A DNA stretch of 64,000 nucleotides, taken from Streptomyces exfoliatus. GTDB lineage: Bacteria > Actinomycetota > Actinomycetes > Streptomycetales > Streptomycetaceae. The position numbers and the translations under genes are program-made. A model generated the notes under the pieces. It saw nothing but the letters and a program-made list of their open reading frames with translations. It did no database searches and had not been told where the DNA came from. This document shows, piece after piece, positions 51,098 through 59,549 of the stretch; position 1 is the first letter of the stretch, and each line of letters starts with the position of its first letter. The stretch is from positions 38,991-102,990 of the forward strand of contig NZ_JNZP01000023.1 in NCBI RefSeq assembly GCF_000725545.1, given 5' to 3'.

Positions 51098-52126
51098 TCA
51101 GGTCTGCGGGAGATGGGTCGGCAGCGCCGCCGCGCCCGCCTCGGTGACCCGGGTCGCACCGAAGTAGTCCGGGGTGTCGATCCGGCTGAAGCGGATCACC
51201 GCCCCGGTGCGCGGCGCGTCGATCATGTACCCGCCGCCCACGTAGATGCCGACGTGCCGGATCGCCCGCGAGTTGGTCAGGTCGTCCGAGAAGAACACGA
51301 GGTCGCCCGGGAGCAGCTCGTTCCTGCTCGGGTGCGGCCCGGCGTTGTACTGGTCGTTGGCGACGCGCGGCAGCTCGATCCCGACGCTCAGGTACGCGGC
51401 CTGGGTGAGCCCGGAGCAGTCGAACCGGCCGTTCTGCGCGGCCGTTCCCGTACCGCCCCACAGATACGGGGTGCCGAGCTTCTGCTGCGCGTAGTGGATC
51501 GCGCCGGCCGCCTGCCGGGAGGGGTCGACGCGGCCCGCGGGCCGGGCGAAGCTCTTCTCGAGTGACCGGATGATGCGCACGTAGTTCCGGGTCTCGCTGA
51601 TGGGGGGCACGCCGGCGTGCTTGATCACCCGGTACGCGCCCGCGTTGTACGCCGCCAGCATGTTGTTCGTCAGGTCGCCTGGCACGTTCTTCACGTAGCC
51701 GGCGAGCTCGCAGTCGTACGAGGCGGCGGACGGGATCGCGTCCTTGGGGTCCCAGATGTCCCGGTCTCCGTCCCCGTCGCCGTCCACTCCGTGACCGGCC
51801 CAGGTGCCGGGGATGAACTGGGCGATGCCGCGGGCGTCGGCATGGGAGACGGCCCGCGGGTTCCAGCCGCTCTCCTGGTAGAGCTGGGCGGCGAGCAGCG
51901 CCGGGTTGATGGCGGGACAGAGGTTTCCCCACTTCTGCACGAGCCCCTGGTAGAGAGCGGGCACAGAACCCTTGGCCAAGGCCACGGTGCCGTTCTTGGA
52001 GCTGCCCGCACCGCCGACGAGACCGGCCGCCGCCGAGTACGTACCGATGACGAGCAGTGCGACGAAGCCGATACAGACCCCGAAGGCCCCGCCGGCCACC
52101 AGCCATGCCTTGCCGGCCCTACGCAC
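51098..52126 (-). CDS. bifunctional peptidoglycan hydrolase: SLT + NlpC/P60
   Basis: A 342-residue protein with an N-terminal membrane anchor (WLVAGGAFGVCIGFVALLVIG). A lytic transglycosylase domain follows with catalytic Glu at about 85 (LYQESGWNP), GIAQFIPGTW and AYNAGAYRV. The C-terminal NlpC/P60 endopeptidase has Cys237 (FDCSG) and His in RHVGIYVG. This domain pair is the VirB1-like wall hydrolase of Gram-positive type IV secretion systems. It is divergent from a type IV secretion-like operon, which supports a shared task. GTG 52126 has AAGGGG 9 bases upstream; TTG 52132 is also possible. Confidence 0.92.
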   Translation of the reverse strand: MRRAGKAWLVAGGAFGVCIGFVALLVIGTYSAAAGLVGGAGSSKNGTVALAKGSVPALYQGLVQKWGNLCPAINPALLAAQLYQESGWNPRAVSHADARGIAQFIPGTWAGHGVDGDGDGDRDIWDPKDAIPSAASYDCELAGYVKNVPGDLTNNMLAAYNAGAYRVIKHAGVPPISETRNYVRIIRSLEKSFARPAGRVDPSRQAAGAIHYAQQKLGTPYLWGGTGTAAQNGRFDCSGLTQAAYLSVGIELPRVANDQYNAGPHPSRNELLPGDLVFFSDDLTNSRAIRHVGIYVGGGYMIDAPRTGAVIRFSRIDTPDYFGATRVTEAGAAALPTHLPQT

Positions 52127-52442
52127 CGTCAACCACCCCTTGGCTCATGGCAGTACGCCCCGGGCCCAGTCTAGGCGGACGCCGACGCCGCCCCAAGAGT
52201 GCAACAACGACAATCATTGCCCGGAGTCACTCTCCGTGATACACAGAGTGACCATACGCTTCTTCGCATAGAAACCGGCCACACCACCGCAGGTCAAGAC
52301 GGTCACATCGGTCAAGTGTGCGGGGATCGGGTAAAGAGTGCCGCCAAGCCGTCACACGCGGGCGGTTTCATCAGCGAAGATAGGGCGATGACCCATGCCA
52401 TCCGGCAGGGGCGACAACTACCCCATACGGGCGGTGAGTTAC
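52127..52442. other. 316-bp divergent promoter region with repeat elements
   Basis: No gene seen. It contains an inverted repeat GTCACTCT-n11-AGAGTGAC (52226-52252), three 9-bp direct repeats GGTCAAGAC, GGTCACATC and GGTCAAGTG (52292-52318), and a TAGACT -10-like box (minus strand, about 52170) for the hydrolase gene. The repeats are candidates for shared control of hydrolase and secretion-like operon. No riboswitch fold was recognised. Confidence 0.6.
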
Positions 52443-52751
52443 ATGTACCTGGCGGCTGAAAAAGGCGACATCACCACCATCATCGGTGGAATCGCCCCGA
52501 ACTGGGGCCCTTTCGGGAGTCTGGGCGCCGAAGCGAAGATCATGATCGAGGTCGTGATGGCCGTGGCCATCCTGCTCTGCCTCGGCATCGCCATCTGGGG
52601 AGCGGCCAAACAGCGCATCGGCGCGACCGCCCTCCGCGACACGTTCAGCGCGGAACAGGGCAAGGGCCTGATCGTGGCCGGCCTGACCGGCGTCTTCATC
52701 ATCGGCTCCCTGGGGACGCTCTTCACCATCGTGTACGGGATGGCCGTCTGA
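52443..52751 (+). CDS. two-helix membrane protein, VirB2/pilin-like
   Basis: A 102-residue protein from ATG 52443. A short N-terminus with Gly/Ile-rich TTIIGGIAPNWGPFG precedes helix 1 (MIEVVMAVAILLCLGIAIWG), a polar loop (AAKQRIGATALRDTFSAEQG) and helix 2 (LIVAGLTGVFIIGSLGTLFTI). The size and two-helix layout match VirB2/TrbC-type subunits of type IV secretion systems. First gene of the secretion-like operon. No signal peptide cleavage site is clear. Confidence 0.65.
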   Translation: MYLAAEKGDITTIIGGIAPNWGPFGSLGAEAKIMIEVVMAVAILLCLGIAIWGAAKQRIGATALRDTFSAEQGKGLIVAGLTGVFIIGSLGTLFTIVYGMAV

Positions 52752-52850
52752 TTCCCCGTCGGAACCGGCCCTCCTGAGATTGCGTTCCCTGATGTCCAGT
52801 CATGTTGCAGCACTGCCCGTACCGCGAACCAGTGAGGGGGCGTACCCGGC

Positions 52851-53687
52851 ATGAGTCCCGGTGACGAGCACGACAGCTTCGGCGGCGTGGGCGGCTCGGG
52901 CCAGACCCGGACCCGCCTGCCCGAGGGCAACAGCGGCGACGTCTACGGCGGCGCCCGCCGCCCCGTCCGCAGCCCCCGCTCCCTCATCACGGTCGTGGGC
53001 GTGGTGGTCCTCCTCATCGCGGCCATCGCCTTCGCCAACCGCGGCGGCGCCGACCCGGCGGACGCGTCGGACCCCACCTCCGGCACCCCGGGCAAGACGG
53101 CCCCCACGGCGGCGACGGGCGTCCGCCCCGTCACGGGCAAGAACGGCGCGATCCCCACGGGCCACGCCCACGACGAACAGGGCGCCCAGAGCGCGGCGAC
53201 GAACTACGCGGTGGCGCTGGGCTCGACGGGCATGTTCCAGGACGGCCCCCGCGAGGACATCGTGCGCGCGACCCACGACCCCGCCGTCGCGGACGACCTG
53301 CTGAAGCGGCTGGACACCTCCTACTCGGAAGGCTTCCTGACCAGCATCGGACTCGACGCGAACGGCGCCGCCCCCACCGGCCTGACCTTCGTGTCCCGCA
53401 CGGTCCCGGTCGGCGCCAAGGTCGTGGAGTACACGGAGACCTCCGCGACCGTGGAGGTCTGGTGCACCGGCCTCCTCGGCCTGGCCGGAGCGGGCTCGAC
53501 CAAGCCCGTCACCTCCGCGTGGTTCACCCTCACCGAGAAGCTCACCTGGGTCGGGGACGACTGGCGCGTCACGTCGTCGACCCAGACCGAAGGCCCCACA
53601 CCGGTCAACGGCGACAACCGCGCCTCCATGGCCGACGAGATCGCCGCGGCGGTCGAGGGATACGGAGGCTTCACCTATGCCCGCTGA
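52851..53687 (+). CDS. single-span membrane protein, TcpC/VirB8-like
   Basis: A 278-residue protein. Its 40-residue cytoplasmic tail precedes one helix (LITVVGVVVLLIAAIAFAN), a Pro/Thr linker and an extracytoplasmic domain with EVWCTGLLGLAGAGS and SAWFTLTEKLTWVGDDWRV. That is the alpha+beta NTF2-like pattern of VirB8/TcpC proteins. In type IV systems this part scaffolds the channel. GAGGGGG precedes ATG 52851. It overlaps the next gene by 11 bases. Confidence 0.65.
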   Translation: MSPGDEHDSFGGVGGSGQTRTRLPEGNSGDVYGGARRPVRSPRSLITVVGVVVLLIAAIAFANRGGADPADASDPTSGTPGKTAPTAATGVRPVTGKNGAIPTGHAHDEQGAQSAATNYAVALGSTGMFQDGPREDIVRATHDPAVADDLLKRLDTSYSEGFLTSIGLDANGAAPTGLTFVSRTVPVGAKVVEYTETSATVEVWCTGLLGLAGAGSTKPVTSAWFTLTEKLTWVGDDWRVTSSTQTEGPTPVNGDNRASMADEIAAAVEGYGGFTYAR

Positions 53688-55011
53688 CCGCAGCATCGCG
53701 GGGCGCGCGGCGGCCACCGCAGCCGTCGCCCTCCTCTCCGTACCGTTCCTGTCGCTCTCGGCCGCCCAGGCCGCGCCCACGCCGACCCCGACGGCGCCCA
53801 CCCCGTCCCCGAGCGCCTCCAACAACGACTGCGGCCTCATCGTGGGGCAGGCCCGGGACCTGTGCGAGAAAGGCCAGCCCGGTGGAGGCGGTGGCGCCTC
53901 CGTCACCGAACCCACGGCCGCGCTCGACCCGCTGTCGTCCCTCGCCCGCGGCTGCGCCGACGCCGCCATCGCCACCATCGACTACCTCTCCAAGGCCGTC
54001 AAAGAGACCGCCGACGTCGACTTCACCAACACGGAGTTCCTCGGCCGGTACGCGATCGTCTTCGCCGCCTCCACCTTCCTCACCCTCCTCCTCTGGCTCC
54101 TCGCCGTCGCCAAGCGGGCCGTCCGCGGCGTCCCCCTCACCACCGCGCTCTCCGAAGCCATCGGCTTCCTCTGGCTGACCGTCCTGGCCTCCGCCTTCAC
54201 GCCCCTGATCCTCTACACCGTCGTCAACGCCACCGACGCCGTCACCGAGGTCATCGCCTCCGGCACCGGCCAGCAGACCGACGTCTTCTTCGGCAGCTTC
54301 AAGCAGGCCCTCCAGAAGGGCGACAGCATCGGTGGCGGCCCCATCATGCTGATCATCGTGTCCCTGGTGACCGTCGTCGCCGCGGGCGTGCTCTACCTGG
54401 AGCTGTTCCTCCGCGCCGTGATGCTCTACGTCGGCGCGCTCCTCGGCGTCGTCGTCTACTCCGGCCTCGTCGACAAGAACATGTGGGGCCACGTCCGCCG
54501 CTGGGCCGGCATCATGATCGCGATCATCCTCGTCAAGCCGGTCATCGTCATCGTCCTCGGCCTGGCGGGCGCGCTCTCCTCCGGCACCGGCCCCGACTCG
54601 TTCTCCGCCGTCGTCTCCGGCCTCGCGATCATCCTGCTCGCGATCTTCGCCTCCGCGATGATCTACCGCTTCGTCCCCGGCTTCGGCGACGAGATCGCCG
54701 CCTCCCGGAACAACCGCCTCCACCGCGCGGGCGAGAACACCGCCGCCGCCGTCATGACCTCCCCCGCCTCCCTCGTCTCCCAGGGAATCAAGACCCACAG
54801 CTCCCGCGGCGACGGCGGCCAGTCCTCCCAGGGCTCCGGCCCCCGCCCCGCCAACCCCATGTCCGGCGGCATGGCCGCCCACAGCAGCCGCGGCGGAAGC
54901 GGCGGCGGGAGCGGCGGCGGCGCCACTCCCCCACCCGCACCCCGTAGCAGCAGCCCCACCGCGGGCACCCCGCACAGCAACCGCAAGAACTCTGGAGGTG
55001 GAGGGCGTTGA
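53677..55011 (+). CDS. polytopic membrane protein, VirB6/TrbL-like
   Basis: A 444-residue protein. A signal peptide (AAATAAVALLSVPFLSLSAAQA, shown as location) precedes a Pro/Thr region and a Cys-bearing segment. Then come five to six helices (YAIVFAASTFLTLLLWLLAV, IMLIIVSLVTVVAAGVLYLE, IIAIILVKPVIVIVLGLAG-like), and a C-terminal cytoplasmic tail of about 100 residues rich in Ser, Gly and Pro. This is the architecture of VirB6/TrbL channel proteins. Its stop overlaps the next start (TTGA). Confidence 0.7.
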   Translation: MPADRSIAGRAAATAAVALLSVPFLSLSAAQAAPTPTPTAPTPSPSASNNDCGLIVGQARDLCEKGQPGGGGGASVTEPTAALDPLSSLARGCADAAIATIDYLSKAVKETADVDFTNTEFLGRYAIVFAASTFLTLLLWLLAVAKRAVRGVPLTTALSEAIGFLWLTVLASAFTPLILYTVVNATDAVTEVIASGTGQQTDVFFGSFKQALQKGDSIGGGPIMLIIVSLVTVVAAGVLYLELFLRAVMLYVGALLGVVVYSGLVDKNMWGHVRRWAGIMIAIILVKPVIVIVLGLAGALSSGTGPDSFSAVVSGLAIILLAIFASAMIYRFVPGFGDEIAASRNNRLHRAGENTAAAVMTSPASLVSQGIKTHSSRGDGGQSSQGSGPRPANPMSGGMAAHSSRGGSGGGSGGGATPPPAPRSSSPTAGTPHSNRKNSGGGGR

Positions 55012-56561
55012 CGACCCAGTCCCAGCCGGTCGCGCCCCGCCGCACGTATCTCGTGGGCCGCGCCCGGCCCAACGCGATCGTCGGCAAGAACCGCGAGACC
55101 GGCGAGATCGCCCTGATCATCGTCGGCGCCTTCCTCGGCATGATGAGCGGACTCCTCGTCCCCCTCCTCCCCCTGCGGATCGCGCTCCTCGCCGGCCTGC
55201 CCATGCTCGCGATCGCCGCCGTGTACCTCCCGTACAAGCACCGCACCTTCTACAAGTGGTTCGAGATCAACCGCAGCTACAAGCGGATGCTCAAGCGCGG
55301 CACGGCCTACCGCTCCGTCGTCTCCGAGGCCGGCACCCGTCTCGACGGCCGCGAGGTCGAGGTCGGCCCGCCGCCCGGCATCGGCCGCGTCGGCTGGCTC
55401 GCCGCCCCCTTCGGCCCCGACGAGATCGCCGTCCTCCTGCACGCCGACCGCCGCACCGTCACCGCCGCCATCGAGATCGAGGGCCCCGGCGTCGGCCTGC
55501 GCGACAGCGAGGACCAGGAGGCCCTGGTCGACCGCTTCGGCACCCTCCTCAAGCACGTCGCCAACGGCGACGGCTTCGTCACCCGCCTCCAGATGCTCGC
55601 CCGCACCCTCCCCGCCGACCCCGACGCCCACGCCAAGGACGTCGGCCAGCGAGGCGACCCGCACGCGCCCGCGTGGCTCATGGAGTCGTACGACCAGCTC
55701 CAGTCGATGGTCTCCACCTCCAGCGAGCAGCACCGCGCCTACCTCGTCGCCTGCATGCACTACACGCGCGAACTCGCCGCCGAGGCCAACGCCATGGCCC
55801 GCGCCGCCCGGCACGCCTCCGGCGCCCGCCGCCTCGACCGCGACGCCGGCCTCGCCGTCGTCATGGCCCGCGAGCTCACCGACATCTGCGCCCGCCTCGC
55901 CGAGGCCGACATCCGTGTCCGCCAGCCCCTCGGGCAGTCCCGGCTCGCCTCCCTCGTGCACTCCATGTACGACCCGGACCACCCCATCGACCACATCCAG
56001 GCCATGACGAAACGAAACGCTTGGCCAGCCGAACTCGACGCCATGGAACCGACGTACCTCCAGGCCAAGACCCGCGAGTCCTCGACCCGGGCCCCCTGGT
56101 GCCACGCCACGGCCTGGGTGAAGGAGTGGCCGATGACCCCGGTCGGCGTCAACTTCCTCGCCCCCCTCCTCGTCCACACCCCCGACGTCATCCGCACGGT
56201 CGCCGTCACCATGGACCTGGAACCGACCGAGGTCGCCATCGAGCGCATGCTCACGGAGAAGACCAACGACGAGGCCGACGCCAGCCGCGCCGCCAAGATG
56301 AACCGCACGGTCGACCCCCGCGACATCGCCGCCCACGGCCGGCTCGACCAGCGGGGTGAAGATCTCGCCAGCGGGGCTGCCGGAGTGAACCTGGTCGGGT
56401 ACATCACGGTGTCGTCGCGTTCCCCCGAGGCCCTGGCCCGGGACAAGCGCACGATCAGGGCCTCCGCCGGCAAGTCGTATCTGAAGCTGGAGTGGTGCGA
56501 CCGCGAGCACCACCGGGCCTTTGTGAACACCTTGCCGTTCGCGACCGGCATCCGCCGCTAA
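55008..56561 (+). CDS. SCO6880 family protein (VirB3-VirB4 N-terminal-like)
   Basis: A 517-residue protein from TTG 55008 behind GGAGG. Two N-terminal helices (IALIIVGAFLGMMSGLLVPL, LLAGLPMLAIAAVYLP) resemble VirB3/PrgI, followed by a long cytoplasmic domain like the N-terminal half of VirB4. No Walker motif is present here; the ATPase half is the next gene. The protein belongs to the family named after S. coelicolor SCO6880. This split, membrane-anchored arrangement is found in actinobacterial type IV-like systems. Confidence 0.75.
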   Translation: MTTQSQPVAPRRTYLVGRARPNAIVGKNRETGEIALIIVGAFLGMMSGLLVPLLPLRIALLAGLPMLAIAAVYLPYKHRTFYKWFEINRSYKRMLKRGTAYRSVVSEAGTRLDGREVEVGPPPGIGRVGWLAAPFGPDEIAVLLHADRRTVTAAIEIEGPGVGLRDSEDQEALVDRFGTLLKHVANGDGFVTRLQMLARTLPADPDAHAKDVGQRGDPHAPAWLMESYDQLQSMVSTSSEQHRAYLVACMHYTRELAAEANAMARAARHASGARRLDRDAGLAVVMARELTDICARLAEADIRVRQPLGQSRLASLVHSMYDPDHPIDHIQAMTKRNAWPAELDAMEPTYLQAKTRESSTRAPWCHATAWVKEWPMTPVGVNFLAPLLVHTPDVIRTVAVTMDLEPTEVAIERMLTEKTNDEADASRAAKMNRTVDPRDIAAHGRLDQRGEDLASGAAGVNLVGYITVSSRSPEALARDKRTIRASAGKSYLKLEWCDREHHRAFVNTLPFATGIRR

Positions 56562-56581
56562 GGCCGAAGGGGCACCGACCG

Positions 56582-57979
56582 ATGCGAGATCCGCTGTCCG
56601 TCCTCACCGACGCCTTCACCTCCTTCGTCTTCGGAAAGGTGGAGACGACCCGCCTGCCCGTCCGCACCTCCACCGGACAGGCCCAGGCCGTCTACCTGCC
56701 GACCGCCGCCCCCGGCCTCGGCGACTCCGGCGTCATCATCGGCCGCGAGGTCTACAGCGGAAAGGGGTACATCTACGACCCCTTCCAGCTGTACGGGCAG
56801 CAGCTCCCCGCCCCGCACTGGCTGGTCCTCGGCGAGTCCGGCAACGGCAAGTCGGCCCTGGAGAAGACGTACGTGCTCCGCCAGCTCCGCTTCCGCGACC
56901 GGCAGGTCGTCGTCCTCGACGCCCAGGGCGAGGACGGCGTCGGCGAGTGGAACCTCATCGCCCAGGAGCTGGGGATAACCCCCATCCGCCTGGACCCGAT
57001 GGTCGCCAACGACTCCGGGATCCGCCTCAACCCGCTCGACCCGTCGATCACCACGACCGGGCAGCTCGCCCTGCTCCGCACGATCATCGAGGTGGCGATG
57101 GGCCACGGCCTCGACGAGCGCGCCGGCTTCGCGCTCAAGGTCGCCCACGCCTACGTCACCGAGCACAAGACGGACCGCCAGCCGATCCTCACCGACATCG
57201 TCGAGCAGCTCCGCCACCCCAAGGCCGAATCGGCCGAGGCGATGAACGTCGACATAGACGACGTCCGCGCCTGGGGCCTGGACGTCGCCCTCGTCCTCGA
57301 CCGGCTCGTCGACGGCGACCTGCGCGGCATGTTCGACGGCCCGACGACCGTCGGCATCGACCTCGACGCGCCCCTGATCGTCTTCGACCTCTCCCACATC
57401 GACCGCAACTCCATCGCCATGCCCATCCTCATGGCCATCGTCGGCGTCTGGCTGGAACACACCTGGATCCGCCCCGACCGGAAGAAGCGCATCTTCCTCG
57501 TCGAGGAGGCCTGGCACATCATCAACAGCCCGTTCGTGGCGCAGCTCTTCCAGCGGCTGCTCAAGTTCGGCCGCCGCCTCGGCCTGTCGTTCGTCGCCGT
57601 CGTCCACCACCTCTCCGACGTGGTCGACGGAGCGGCCGCCAAGGAAGCGGCGGCGATCCTCAAGATGGCCTCCACCCGGACCATCTACGCCCAGAAGGCC
57701 GACGAGGCACGCAACACGGGCCGGGTCCTCGGCCTGCCCCGCTGGGCGGTGGAGATCATCCCGACCCTCACCCCCGGCATCGCGGTCTGGGACGTCAACG
57801 GCAACGTCCAGGTGGTCAAGCACCTCATCACCGAGAAGGAACGCCCGCTCGTCTACACGGACCGCGCCATGACCGAGTCCTCGGTCACCGATCCCGAACT
57901 GGAGTGGGAGACGGAACAGCGGGCGATCCTCATCGAGCAGCAGCAACTGAACGGCACTTCGCAGTCGACGGTGGCATAG
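56582..57979 (+). CDS. VirB4-like ATPase (ATP-binding half)
   Basis: A 465-residue soluble ATPase. Walker A is GESGNGKS (84-91) and Walker B KRIFLVEEAWH (about 305). LSFVAVVHHLSDV and RNTGRVLGLPRWAVEI are typical of the VirB4/TraG C-terminal region. It would power assembly or transport. ATG 56582 lies 20 bases after the previous stop. Together with the preceding protein it makes one complete VirB4 equivalent. Confidence 0.85.
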   Translation: MRDPLSVLTDAFTSFVFGKVETTRLPVRTSTGQAQAVYLPTAAPGLGDSGVIIGREVYSGKGYIYDPFQLYGQQLPAPHWLVLGESGNGKSALEKTYVLRQLRFRDRQVVVLDAQGEDGVGEWNLIAQELGITPIRLDPMVANDSGIRLNPLDPSITTTGQLALLRTIIEVAMGHGLDERAGFALKVAHAYVTEHKTDRQPILTDIVEQLRHPKAESAEAMNVDIDDVRAWGLDVALVLDRLVDGDLRGMFDGPTTVGIDLDAPLIVFDLSHIDRNSIAMPILMAIVGVWLEHTWIRPDRKKRIFLVEEAWHIINSPFVAQLFQRLLKFGRRLGLSFVAVVHHLSDVVDGAAAKEAAAILKMASTRTIYAQKADEARNTGRVLGLPRWAVEIIPTLTPGIAVWDVNGNVQVVKHLITEKERPLVYTDRAMTESSVTDPELEWETEQRAILIEQQQLNGTSQSTVA

Positions 57980-57983
57980 ACGC

Positions 57984-59549
57984 ATGGACACGGCACGGAA
58001 GGGAGGCGGCGGAGGCATCTCCGACGGGCTGCTGCTCAGCCTCTTCGGGCTCCTCCTCTGCCTCACGGTCCTGGTGTGGACGGCGACCGGCCTGGCCGGT
58101 CTCCTCTCCCACGGCGCCTGGCCGGAGGGCATCACCCTCACGGGCACGCCGTCGGCCCTCCGCTCCCTCGTGACCGCCCCGACGGACCTCCCGGCCGCCT
58201 GGCCGGCCACCCCGCCGGGACAGCTCTCCGGGTACGGGCTCTTCTGGGGCCTGCTGATCGGCGAGGCGATGATCCTGCTGGTCCTCGCCGTCTTCGCGCT
58301 GGGCACGCTGGCCCGCTGGCGAGCGGTCAGGACGAACAGGAAGGCGGGAGCGTACGGTCACGCCCACCCGGCTCCCGTACGGGACGGCCTGACCGCGCCC
58401 GCCCCGACCGAGCCCGTACGGGTCACCCCACCCCGCACGGAGACACCCCCTGCACCCGCACCGCCCCTGACCCCCACCCCGACACCCACACCCGCACCGG
58501 CACCCACACCCGCACCCGCACCGGCACCGGCACCGGCACCGGCACCGGCAGATCCGACACCGACACCCGTCATTCCCGCACCGCCCGCCGCACCCGCCCC
58601 AGTCGTCACACCCGCCCCGGCAGCGTCACCCCGTACCGTCTACGGCCCCCGGGAAACCCGTCACCCCGCCGCCGTGCAGGCGATCCGGGACGCCGAGGGC
58701 CCCGTCCTCGTCGTCACCTCCGACCCCACCGTCTGGTCGACGACGAAGGACGCGCGCGGCAAGCTCGGCCCGGTCCTGGTCCACGACCCCGGCCACCTGT
58801 GCGACACCCCCGCCCGGCTCCACTGGTCCCCGTCCGAGCACTGCGAGGACCCGGACGTGGCCGCGCAGCGAGCCGTGGCCCTGCTCGCCCCCGTCCGCCC
58901 GCACTCCCGCCTGGACGCGGCCACCGCCGACACCGCGGAAACGCTCCTGCGCTGCTGGCTGCACGCCGCCGCCGTCGACGGCCGCCCCTTCCGCCAAGTC
59001 CACCGCTGGGCACAGGGCGCCGGTGCCCACGAGCCGGTACGGATCCTCCGCAGCCACCCCAAGGCGGCGTCGGGTTACGCAGGCCTCCTGGAATCGGCCC
59101 TGACGGCACACCCCGAAAGCCGCCGCCTGGCACAGGAACTGACGGCACGTGCGCTGGCGGCACTCTCCTCGATCCACATCCGGGAGGCCTGCACCCCGAA
59201 CCGAACGGATTCGCTCGCGCTGGCATCTTTCGTCCCCGAAGGGGGCACGCTGTACGTGGTGGGGGAACCGATCGAGGATCCCCGCACCGACCCCGGCGCG
59301 ATGCCGCTCCTGACGGCCCTCGCCGCAAGCGTGGTCGAGCACGGCCGCCGCATGGCCGCACGGTCATCCGACGGTCGGCTCGACCCACCACTGACGCTCG
59401 TCCTCGACGACGTCGCCGCCGTGGCCCCGCTCCCGCAGCTCCCGCAGCTCCTCGCCACCGGCCACGGCCAGGGCCTCCCGACCCTGGCCCTGATGCGCTC
59501 CGCCGAACAGGCCCGATCACGCTGGCCGGAGGACTCCCTCAGCCGCTGA
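57984..59549 (+). CDS. degenerate VirD4/TraG-like coupling protein
   Basis: A 521-residue protein. Two N-terminal helices (LLLSLFGLLLCLTVLVWTA, FWGLLIGEAMILLVLAVFAL) are followed by an Ala-Pro/Thr-Pro linker of about 80 residues coded by a CCGGCA-type microsatellite. The C-terminal domain matches VirD4: VLVVTSDPTVWSTTKDARGK-like segment, PVLVHDPGHL, and LTLVLDDVAAVAPLPQLPQL, which is the Walker B region. No Walker A is visible, and Walker B ends DD rather than DE, so it probably does not hydrolyse ATP. Last gene of the operon. Confidence 0.65.
   Translation: MDTARKGGGGGISDGLLLSLFGLLLCLTVLVWTATGLAGLLSHGAWPEGITLTGTPSALRSLVTAPTDLPAAWPATPPGQLSGYGLFWGLLIGEAMILLVLAVFALGTLARWRAVRTNRKAGAYGHAHPAPVRDGLTAPAPTEPVRVTPPRTETPPAPAPPLTPTPTPTPAPAPTPAPAPAPAPAPAPADPTPTPVIPAPPAAPAPVVTPAPAASPRTVYGPRETRHPAAVQAIRDAEGPVLVVTSDPTVWSTTKDARGKLGPVLVHDPGHLCDTPARLHWSPSEHCEDPDVAAQRAVALLAPVRPHSRLDAATADTAETLLRCWLHAAAVDGRPFRQVHRWAQGAGAHEPVRILRSHPKAASGYAGLLESALTAHPESRRLAQELTARALAALSSIHIREACTPNRTDSLALASFVPEGGTLYVVGEPIEDPRTDPGAMPLLTALAASVVEHGRRMAARSSDGRLDPPLTLVLDDVAAVAPLPQLPQLLATGHGQGLPTLALMRSAEQARSRWPEDSLSR

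What the first reader, a model, noticed from the sequence alone, without database searches (positions are those of the whole stretch)
51098..59549. Chromosomal type IV secretion-like system without a relaxase
The window has a six-gene coupled operon of VirB2-, VirB8-, VirB6-, VirB3/4- and VirD4-like proteins. Opposite it is a bifunctional SLT-NlpC/P60 hydrolase, the VirB1-like enzyme of Gram-positive conjugation. No relaxase, origin of transfer, integrase or attachment site is seen, and flanking genes are core genes. I recall the locus as cmdABCDEF in S. coelicolor, linked to differentiation and antibiotic production. The idea is that a conjugation machine has been domesticated for an envelope or hyphal function. 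The family calls come from architecture and motifs; the role is inference.
Basis: partly seen in the sequence, partly recalled or inferred. Interest (0 to 1): 0.75.

Follow-up and report, generated by a model that had tools for sequence, protein, structure and literature searches.

The report
Sporulation machine built from conjugation parts
Streptomyces and its relatives keep, in one fixed place on the chromosome, a membrane machine descended from a DNA-transfer apparatus; the part that would feed DNA into it has lost its engine or disappeared, which fits its known job in spore development.

Summary
51098-59549 holds tgdA (SLT-NlpC/P60 hydrolase) opposite a tight six-gene operon, cmdF-E-D-C-B-A, ortholog of S. 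coelicolor SCO4131-4126. The locus, its sporulation phenotype and a 'type IV-like channel' idea were published in 2009. New here:
(2) The operon is core: 148 of 150 family genomes carry CmdC at 76% identity or more; its distances track AlaRS (r 0.89).
(3) The VirD4-like subunit, CmdA, is a dead coupling protein. None of 70 distinct C-terminal domains keeps the P-loop, against 13 of 13 related coupling proteins. Only the membrane anchor remains in 7 of 107 loci and nothing in 25, while CmdB keeps its P-loop in 107 of 107.
(4) cmd descends from plasmid conjugation systems; Frankiaceae show a separately derived, VirD4-less parallel.
Best reading: a domesticated, VirB4-powered envelope machine that no longer takes substrates through a coupling ATPase. 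What it moves or builds is untested. 'No relaxase' alone proves little: linear-plasmid relatives show none annotated nearby either.

The parts
51098..52132 (-). tgdA (SCO4132 ortholog): N-terminal anchor or signal, SLT lytic transglycosylase and NlpC/P60 peptidase, VirB1-like wall hydrolase; residues E87, C239, H293 fit the usual catalytic positions (motif reading recalled)
   Evidence: Pfam SLT 6.2e-16, NLPC_P60 5.4e-25; opposite strand to CmdF in 87 of 87 loci where both found, median distance of match starts 351 bp; positions
52215..52253 (+). conserved upstream element TTGC...CGTGATACACAGAGTNAC between tgdA and cmdF; role unknown (promoter or operator)
   Evidence: TGATACAC in 62 of 97 cmdF upstream regions; coordinates
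52395..52751 (+). cmdF: small two-helix VirB2/pilin-like protein; likely start ATG 52443
   Evidence: 65-94% identical among cmd loci of alignment A6, hydrophobic-basic loop-hydrophobic by eye; homolog L049 hits T4SS_pilin 0.013: weak
52851..53687 (+). cmdE: bitopic protein with VirB8 (NTF2-like) domain, presumably outside
53677..55011 (+). cmdD: polytopic VirB6/TrbL-like protein
   Evidence: SCO6881_fam 4e-6, below cut-off; TrbL_4 in 3 and TrbL in 1 of 26 homologs
55008..56561 (+). cmdC: two N-terminal helices at a VirB3/PrgI-like position plus VirB4 N-terminal domain (SCO6880 family)
56582..57979 (+). cmdB: VirB4 C-terminal ATPase (frame open from 56492)
   Evidence: AAA_10 4.7e-13; PDB 4ag5 VirB4 1.5e-5
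56831..56854 (+). CmdB Walker A GESGNGKS, intact; its Lys is residue 90 counted from ATG 56582, matching the K90 mutated in the 2009 paper
   Evidence: GESGNGKS in 107 of 107 loci; coordinates; PMC2782261
57984..59549 (+). cmdA: degenerate VirD4/TraG-like coupling protein: N-terminal hydrophobic pair (about residues 10-110), Pro/Ala-rich linker, ATPase-like domain cut short at the C-terminus
   Evidence: TraG-D_C profile positions 1-50 of 126 only; alignment with intact relatives
58644..58667 (+). site of the lost Walker A in CmdA: GPRETRHP where relatives have GPPRSGKG/APPREGKT
   Evidence: coordinates
59397..59417 (+). CmdA Walker B remnant LVLDDVA (relatives LDE/GDE/VDE)
   Evidence: coordinates

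Best explanation
The tgdA-cmdFEDCBA locus is a type IV secretion apparatus captured from a Streptomyces-type plasmid conjugation system before the family diversified, fixed on the chromosome and turned into a developmental envelope machine. SHOWN by computation: VirB8 and VirB4 N-domain folds (predicted), intact split VirB4 ATPase, paired wall hydrolase, family-wide conservation, and loss of the coupling protein's ATP site, with loss of its whole ATPase-like domain or gene in some lineages. TAKEN FROM PRINT: cmdB transcription rises when aerial hyphae form; mutants branch, septate and segregate chromosomes abnormally and several overproduce actinorhodin; the CmdB Walker-A lysine (K90) is needed, unless the mutant protein was merely unstable; plasmid transfer is unaffected. 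INFERRED: TgdA opens peptidoglycan locally, CmdF-CmdE-CmdD-CmdC form a membrane-to-wall conduit or fibre, and CmdB hydrolyses ATP to extract CmdF pilin subunits or gate the conduit at growing tips or sporulation septa. Nothing is fed in by a VirD4 motor; CmdA, where kept, is at most a structural plug or adaptor, perhaps working through its membrane part.
For: Folds: CmdE; CmdC. ATPase; GESGNGKS in 107 of 107. Core: 148 of 150 family genomes at 76% identity or more, 17 of 17 genera, next best listed 43%; Mantel r 0.89, p 0.0002, n 30, CmdC vs AlaRS; at 0.42-0.63 of the contig length in 14 of 15 large contigs examined. CmdA decay: no P-loop at its site in 79 C-domains, 70 of them distinct, nor in 120 of 120 listed database proteins, vs 13 of 13 relatives with a K[STG] P-loop; Walker-B Glu replaced (LDD/LED/LDQ/LDR/LDN); intermediates such as GPRSDKGK (L099); anchor only in 7 and no cmdA in 25 of 107 distinct loci, 6 undecided at contig ends. 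Of those 25, 24 keep tgdA and cmdF-B; the 25th is a 5 kb contig with cmdC-B. Polarity: the sister is pMDJK44.2 (UFBoot 100), typed MOBF, with P-loop GPMGSGKT. Independent genetics: delta-cmdA is the only single mutant with wild-type-looking sporulation (PMC2782261), and a transposon screen recovered cmdBCDEF and tgdA, with cmdA not named (PMC6585502 passages).
Against: No substrate, pilus or complex is demonstrated. CmdA's ATPase-like domain is under purifying selection in Streptomyces (dN/dS 0.19-0.37 in 9 comparisons) and is no more relaxed than CmdD (0.20-0.50 in 10), so it is not mere debris and may still do something. VirB2 and VirB6 calls are weak; the VirB8 margin over other NTF2-like folds is modest and Foldseek alone ranks ARC6 first. 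In the 2009 paper only cmdB, D and E single mutants (and the full deletion) overproduced pigment, cmdA, C and F did not, so pigment does not single out cmdA. Four well-supported CmdC splits conflict with well-supported AlaRS splits, so inheritance is not shown to be perfectly vertical. One genome (G213/L109) has cmdF, C and B but no detectable cmdE, cmdD or tgdA, at odds with a strict complex unless it is assembly error or local loss.
Confidence: 0.65

Rival explanations
1. DNA pump: CmdB acts as a FtsK-like motor moving chromosomal DNA through a Cmd channel during sporulation septation (a suggestion of the 2009 authors).
For: [quoted passage not shown] the same paper predicts a RecA/FtsK-like motor domain in CmdB.
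Against: The DNA-receptor motor of T4SS, VirD4, is the part that decays; no PF08751/PF03432 relaxase in the genome; mutants also branch abnormally and delay aerial growth, which a pure segregation pump does not predict.
Confidence: 0.15
2. Two-step protein or pilin exporter: substrates cross by Sec/Tat and are then moved or anchored by the VirD4-less machine, as recalled for pertussis Ptl.
For: VirD4-less T4SS of this kind exist (recalled); the CmdE ortholog SCO4130 is listed as a glycoprotein, hence probably exposed outside (PMC6593405 passages).
Against: No obvious substrate gene in the operon; a monoderm envelope makes a second step less needed.
Confidence: 0.15
3. Decaying integrative element (defective ICE) still present by chance.
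For: An ICE survey that classes elements lacking integrase, coupling protein or relaxase as defective reported one near mid-chromosome in all strains of an 11-strain population (PMC9513070 passages); whether that is cmd could not be checked.
Against: 148 of 150 genomes keep it, ATPase motif 107 of 107, purifying selection and published phenotypes.
Confidence: 0.03

Closest known systems
cmdABCDEF (SCO4126-4131) and tgdA (SCO4132) of S. coelicolor (PMC2782261; PMC6585502)
   Same: Taken as the same locus: six co-directional genes, CmdB VirB4-like with K90 at the Walker-A lysine, hydrolase gene next door; sporulation and actinorhodin phenotypes published
   Different: The parts read of the 2009 paper call CmdB VirB4-like and propose a type-IV-like channel; they do not identify CmdA as a VirD4 relative, CmdE as VirB8 or CmdC as VirB4 N-domain, nor the decay of CmdA. 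S. coelicolor's own sequence was not compared here
Conjugation operons of Streptomycetaceae plasmids (pMDJK44.2 L076, linear plasmids L073-L075; SLP2.19-23 named in PMC2782261)
   Same: Order F, E, D, C, B, coupling protein, with a wall hydrolase upstream (SLT-C40 in L076; annotated M23 in two of the three linear ones)
   Different: Plasmids keep P-loop coupling proteins and their CmdC is 38-41% identical; an extra gene lies before the coupling protein in L075 and L076; in L076 the hydrolase is on the same strand
pIP501 T4SS (TraG-B1 transglycosylase/endopeptidase, TraM-B8, TraL-B6, TraE-B4)
   Same: Gram-positive machine with a bifunctional hydrolase contacting a VirB8 (PMC13037476 passages)
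   Different: Conjugative, with VirD4-like TraJ
VirD4-less T4SS of Gram-negatives (Ptl, Brucella VirB, Bartonella Trw; recalled)
   Same: T4SS function without a coupling protein
   Different: Diderm, protein export or adhesion in pathogens; here a developmental core system with a visible decay series of the coupling protein

Membership tests
Type IV secretion system (structural) | VirB4 ATPase with intact Walker A | tested here: met
Type IV secretion system (structural) | VirB8 fold on a bitopic membrane protein | tested here: met
   (predicted model; margin modest)
Type IV secretion system (structural) | VirB3/PrgI-like subunit | tested here: inconclusive
   two N-terminal helices in CmdC; PrgI 0.076 in one of five homologs
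Type IV secretion system (structural) | VirB6/TrbL channel protein | tested here: inconclusive
   TrbL_4 in 3, TrbL in 1 of 26; window protein not matched at E 0.01
Type IV secretion system (structural) | VirB2 pilin | tested here: inconclusive
   T4SS_pilin 0.013 in 1 of 20; topology by eye
Type IV secretion system (structural) | VirB1-like wall hydrolase linked to the operon | tested here: met
Conjugative T4SS / ICE | VirD4 coupling ATPase with P-loop | tested here: not met
Conjugative T4SS / ICE | relaxase | tested here: not met
   PF08751 and PF03432 absent from the genome; other relaxase families not searched
Conjugative T4SS / ICE | integrase and att site | tested here: inconclusive
   no integrase among ten neighbouring genes scanned; only tRNA of the window is 46 kb away; att repeats not searched
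Conjugative T4SS / ICE | oriT | not testable with these tools
   no model for this family's oriT
Type VII secretion (ESX) | EccC FtsK-type ATPase and WXG100 genes in the locus | tested here: not met
   no such Pfam family in the seven locus proteins or ten neighbours, although CmdC's family resembles EccE

The most novel reading that the evidence does not exclude
Filamentous, sporulating actinobacteria have at least twice (Streptomycetaceae and Frankiaceae) turned plasmid conjugation machines into permanent, VirD4-free developmental organelles that pair a VirB4-driven conduit with a dedicated wall hydrolase. In Streptomycetaceae the coupling protein is caught in every stage from dead ATPase, to bare membrane anchor, to gone.
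Probability: 0.5. Interest if true: 0.8.

Novelty: new variant of a known kind. Interest (0 to 1): 0.6.

Why it matters
It turns a vague 2009 annotation ('membrane proteins for differentiation') into a specific, testable machine: which T4SS parts are needed for hyphal development, and whether a T4SS can work without its coupling ATPase in a monoderm. It also gives a natural series of coupling-protein decay next to an invariant VirB4 motif, and warns annotators: database relatives of CmdA are named 'P-loop NTPase' or 'conjugative DNA transfer' although the P-loop is missing, and ICE screens may count the locus as a defective ICE.

Tried and rejected
Rejected readings: defective ICE (too conserved); ESX/T7SS (only CmdC's EccE likeness fits); 'no relaxase proves domestication' (linear plasmids show none annotated nearby either).

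Dead ends and dropped results: PDB profile searches by sequence for CmdE, CmdC and CmdD gave only chance-like matches. Pfam on CmdE homologs gave nothing meaningful. The first AlaRS/CmdC correlation (r -0.06) was wrong because AlaRS was misread in many loci; one search replaces it. In one search, all 10 CmdE rows and three CmdB rows (L209, L222, L177) were dropped: my window coordinates for CmdE were out of frame and the CmdB ORFs were mis-picked. One search looked for the P-loop only in the first 90 residues of each trimmed domain, which in L200 and L219 missed the site; one search repeated it on the whole frames of 78 loci and found the pattern in three (L199, L222, L042), each away from the site (N-terminal part or a later stretch), none at it. 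TgdA motif counts (SLT Glu 77, NlpC Cys 82, His 64 of 87) are lower bounds from narrow patterns and partial hits. cmdF's start was set one base early (52442 instead of 52443), which changes nothing stated. A simple promoter scan found nothing. Literature: searches; no listed title or passage that I read describes CmdA as a degenerate coupling protein, but only open-licence full texts were searched and the 2013 tgdA paper was seen only as a reference.
Full report
WHAT IS THERE. Seven genes at 51098-59549, exactly as reported. tgdA is on the minus strand; cmdF, cmdE, cmdD, cmdC, cmdB, cmdA follow on the plus strand, with overlaps or gaps of at most 20 bases from cmdE on. Pfam and NCBIfam recognise TgdA (SLT and NlpC/P60), CmdB (AAA_10, TraC/VirB4), CmdC (SCO6880 family) and, just below its cut-off, CmdA (TraG-D_C). 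The ten neighbours scanned are ordinary chromosomal genes. The window lies at the end of a 103 kb contig of a 7.9 Mb genome with no PF08751 or PF03432 relaxase and no TraG-D_C protein other than CmdA.

ALREADY IN PRINT. I read parts 1-3 of 4 of PMC2782261. SCO4126-4131 are co-transcribed, cmdB is induced at aerial growth, and mutants show abnormal branching, septation, spore yield and chromosome segregation. Blue pigment (actinorhodin) rises in cmdB, D, E and full deletions, not in cmdA, C, F. All single mutants except delta-cmdA looked poorly sporulating. CmdB is membrane-bound and VirB4-like, and K90 or K404 mutants do not complement (the authors allow for instability). SLP2 plasmid genes resemble SCO4127-4129; transfer of an SLP2-derived plasmid was unaffected; a type IV-like channel was raised. 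K90 is the Walker-A lysine of this window's CmdB when counted from ATG 56582. Passages of PMC6585502 add a transposon screen in which cmdBCDEF and tgdA (SCO4132) insertions raise actinorhodin to the same level; cmdA is not named. Passages of PMC6593405 list SCO4130, taken as the CmdE ortholog, as a glycoprotein.

CONSERVATION. In 197 genomes drawn from the class, 56 have a CmdC match; the 16 listed of the same genus have it at 85-100% and one genome of another family (G007, 6% contaminated) at 70%, then nothing above 39%. In 150 genomes of the own family, 149 match and 148 have an ortholog at 76% or more; the two exceptions are 71% and 76% complete. A scan with names gave the best 80 of at least 555 loci. 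Pooling 116 loci gives 107 distinct ones after nine duplicates. All have CmdB and CmdC (CmdC by the way they were found); CmdD in 105, CmdE 103, CmdF 97, TgdA 87, with contig ends counted as absences. TgdA is on the opposite strand to CmdF in all 87, median distance 351 bp, though up to 6.7 kb. CmdC distances correlate with AlaRS (r 0.89, p 0.0002, 30 genomes); 13 of 27 splits are shared, 7 of them strong in both, and four strong CmdC splits conflict with strong AlaRS splits.

THE COUPLING PROTEIN. Relatives on plasmids and in other families have GPPRSGKG, APPREGKT, GPMGSGKT, AVTGAGKS, GVPGSSKT and the like (13 of 13 with a K[STG] P-loop) and LDE, GDE or VDE at Walker B. In cmd loci no P-loop stands at that site in 79 C-terminal domains, 70 of them distinct including the window; the pattern [GA]xxxxGK[STG] is absent from all 120 listed database relatives, all of them close ones out of 3812 found. 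Relics such as GPRSDKGK (L099), PRGSDKGK (L104) and GPHSDKGP (L101) look like broken P-loops; in g92 none is recognisable. The Walker-B glutamate is replaced, and in the window's protein the last 76 of 126 TraG-D_C positions are unmatched. Of 107 loci, 69 have anchor plus domain, 7 only the anchor, 25 nothing, and 6 end too soon. The 25 are one close group of 24 (13 labelled Kitasatospora, nine labelled Streptomyces or Saccharothrix, two unnamed; CmdC nearest neighbours 93-99% identical and all within the group) plus L106, where what reads by eye like a ribosomal RNA operon follows cmdB. The seven anchor-only loci (one Yinghuangia, two Embleya, one labelled Streptomyces, three unnamed) are likewise each other's nearest. 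In six genomes with anchor-only or missing cmdA, three have no such domain anywhere and three only relatives at 27-33%. The remaining domain is still selected in Streptomyces (dN/dS 0.19-0.37 in 9 comparisons; CmdB 0.08-0.15 in 7 valid; CmdC 0.12-0.21 in 10; CmdF 0.10-0.21 in 9; CmdD 0.20-0.50 in 10), so CmdA is a pseudoenzyme there rather than a pseudogene.

ORIGIN. In a 40-sequence CmdC tree the cmd clade is sister to pMDJK44.2 (support 100), a plasmid typed MOBF whose cluster has an SLT-C40 hydrolase and a P-loop coupling protein; the linear-plasmid type joins next (96); Frankia sequences sit in another part of the tree across a fully supported split (midpoint rooted). The loss of the coupling motor is therefore most simply derived.

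FRANKIA PARALLEL. A second group in the class, f18, is Frankiaceae by its named relatives (Pseudofrankia, Frankia, Protofrankia at 81-86%). 32 of 35 genomes match and 31 have an ortholog-level copy, two of them split. All 11 loci read have a TgdA homolog on the opposite strand, CmdC and CmdB, with CmdE seen by tblastn in 8 and CmdD in 5; CmdB keeps the P-loop lysine (GAVGSRKS or GSVGSRKS); and no VirD4 is found in these 20 kb stretches: a profile built from 13 coupling proteins gives nothing better than 0.0085. So a VirD4-free, hydrolase-paired T4SS appears fixed twice, in two filamentous sporulating families (their lifestyle is recalled).

HOW IT PROBABLY WORKS. The parts kept nearly everywhere are a wall hydrolase, a small two-helix protein, a VirB8, a membrane VirB6-like protein and a VirB4 motor; the part discarded is the one that selects and pushes substrates in conjugation. 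The simplest machine left is one that opens the wall and uses ATP to build or gate a conduit or fibre. This agrees with the transposon screen (cmdB-F and tgdA hit, cmdA not named) and with the normal sporulation of delta-cmdA; the pigment data of 2009 fit only in part. Whether DNA, protein or only pilin moves is unknown.

VERDICT. Locus and T4SS hint already known; architecture, pseudo-coupling protein, its decay series, family-wide fixation and the Frankia parallel are, as far as the searches made here show, new. I file it as a domesticated, VirD4-less variant of a type IV secretion system, not as a conjugation system.

Noticed in passing
L050-L060 (Frankiaceae), e.g. L050:3786-7262: Large Pro-rich protein (open frames of about 650-1180 aa) with a MinD/ParA-like C-terminal look (reading by eye; Pfam found nothing for L050) between the hydrolase and the T4SS genes; found by motif in 10 of 11 loci.
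   Followed up: partly
[not shown]
   Followed up: partly
window 52215-52253: Conserved element upstream of cmdF, TTGC...CGTGATACACAGAGTNAC, found as TGATACAC in 62 of 97 loci, also in L109 where tgdA is not detected.
   Followed up: partly
L109 (G213:C1:3758800-3778799): cmdE, cmdD and tgdA not detectable while cmdF, C, B and the CmdA anchor remain: natural partial loss or assembly problem.
   Followed up: no
G172:C101:62191-63934 and G344:C156:169938-171739: Frankiaceae CmdC split in two pieces with a gap in the middle in both genomes.
   Followed up: no
L049 (G101:C7:134800-154700): Plasmid-type paralog cluster in a same-genus genome with intact coupling protein, a DUF4913-like gene and a giant Eco57I/ResIII protein.
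   Followed up: partly
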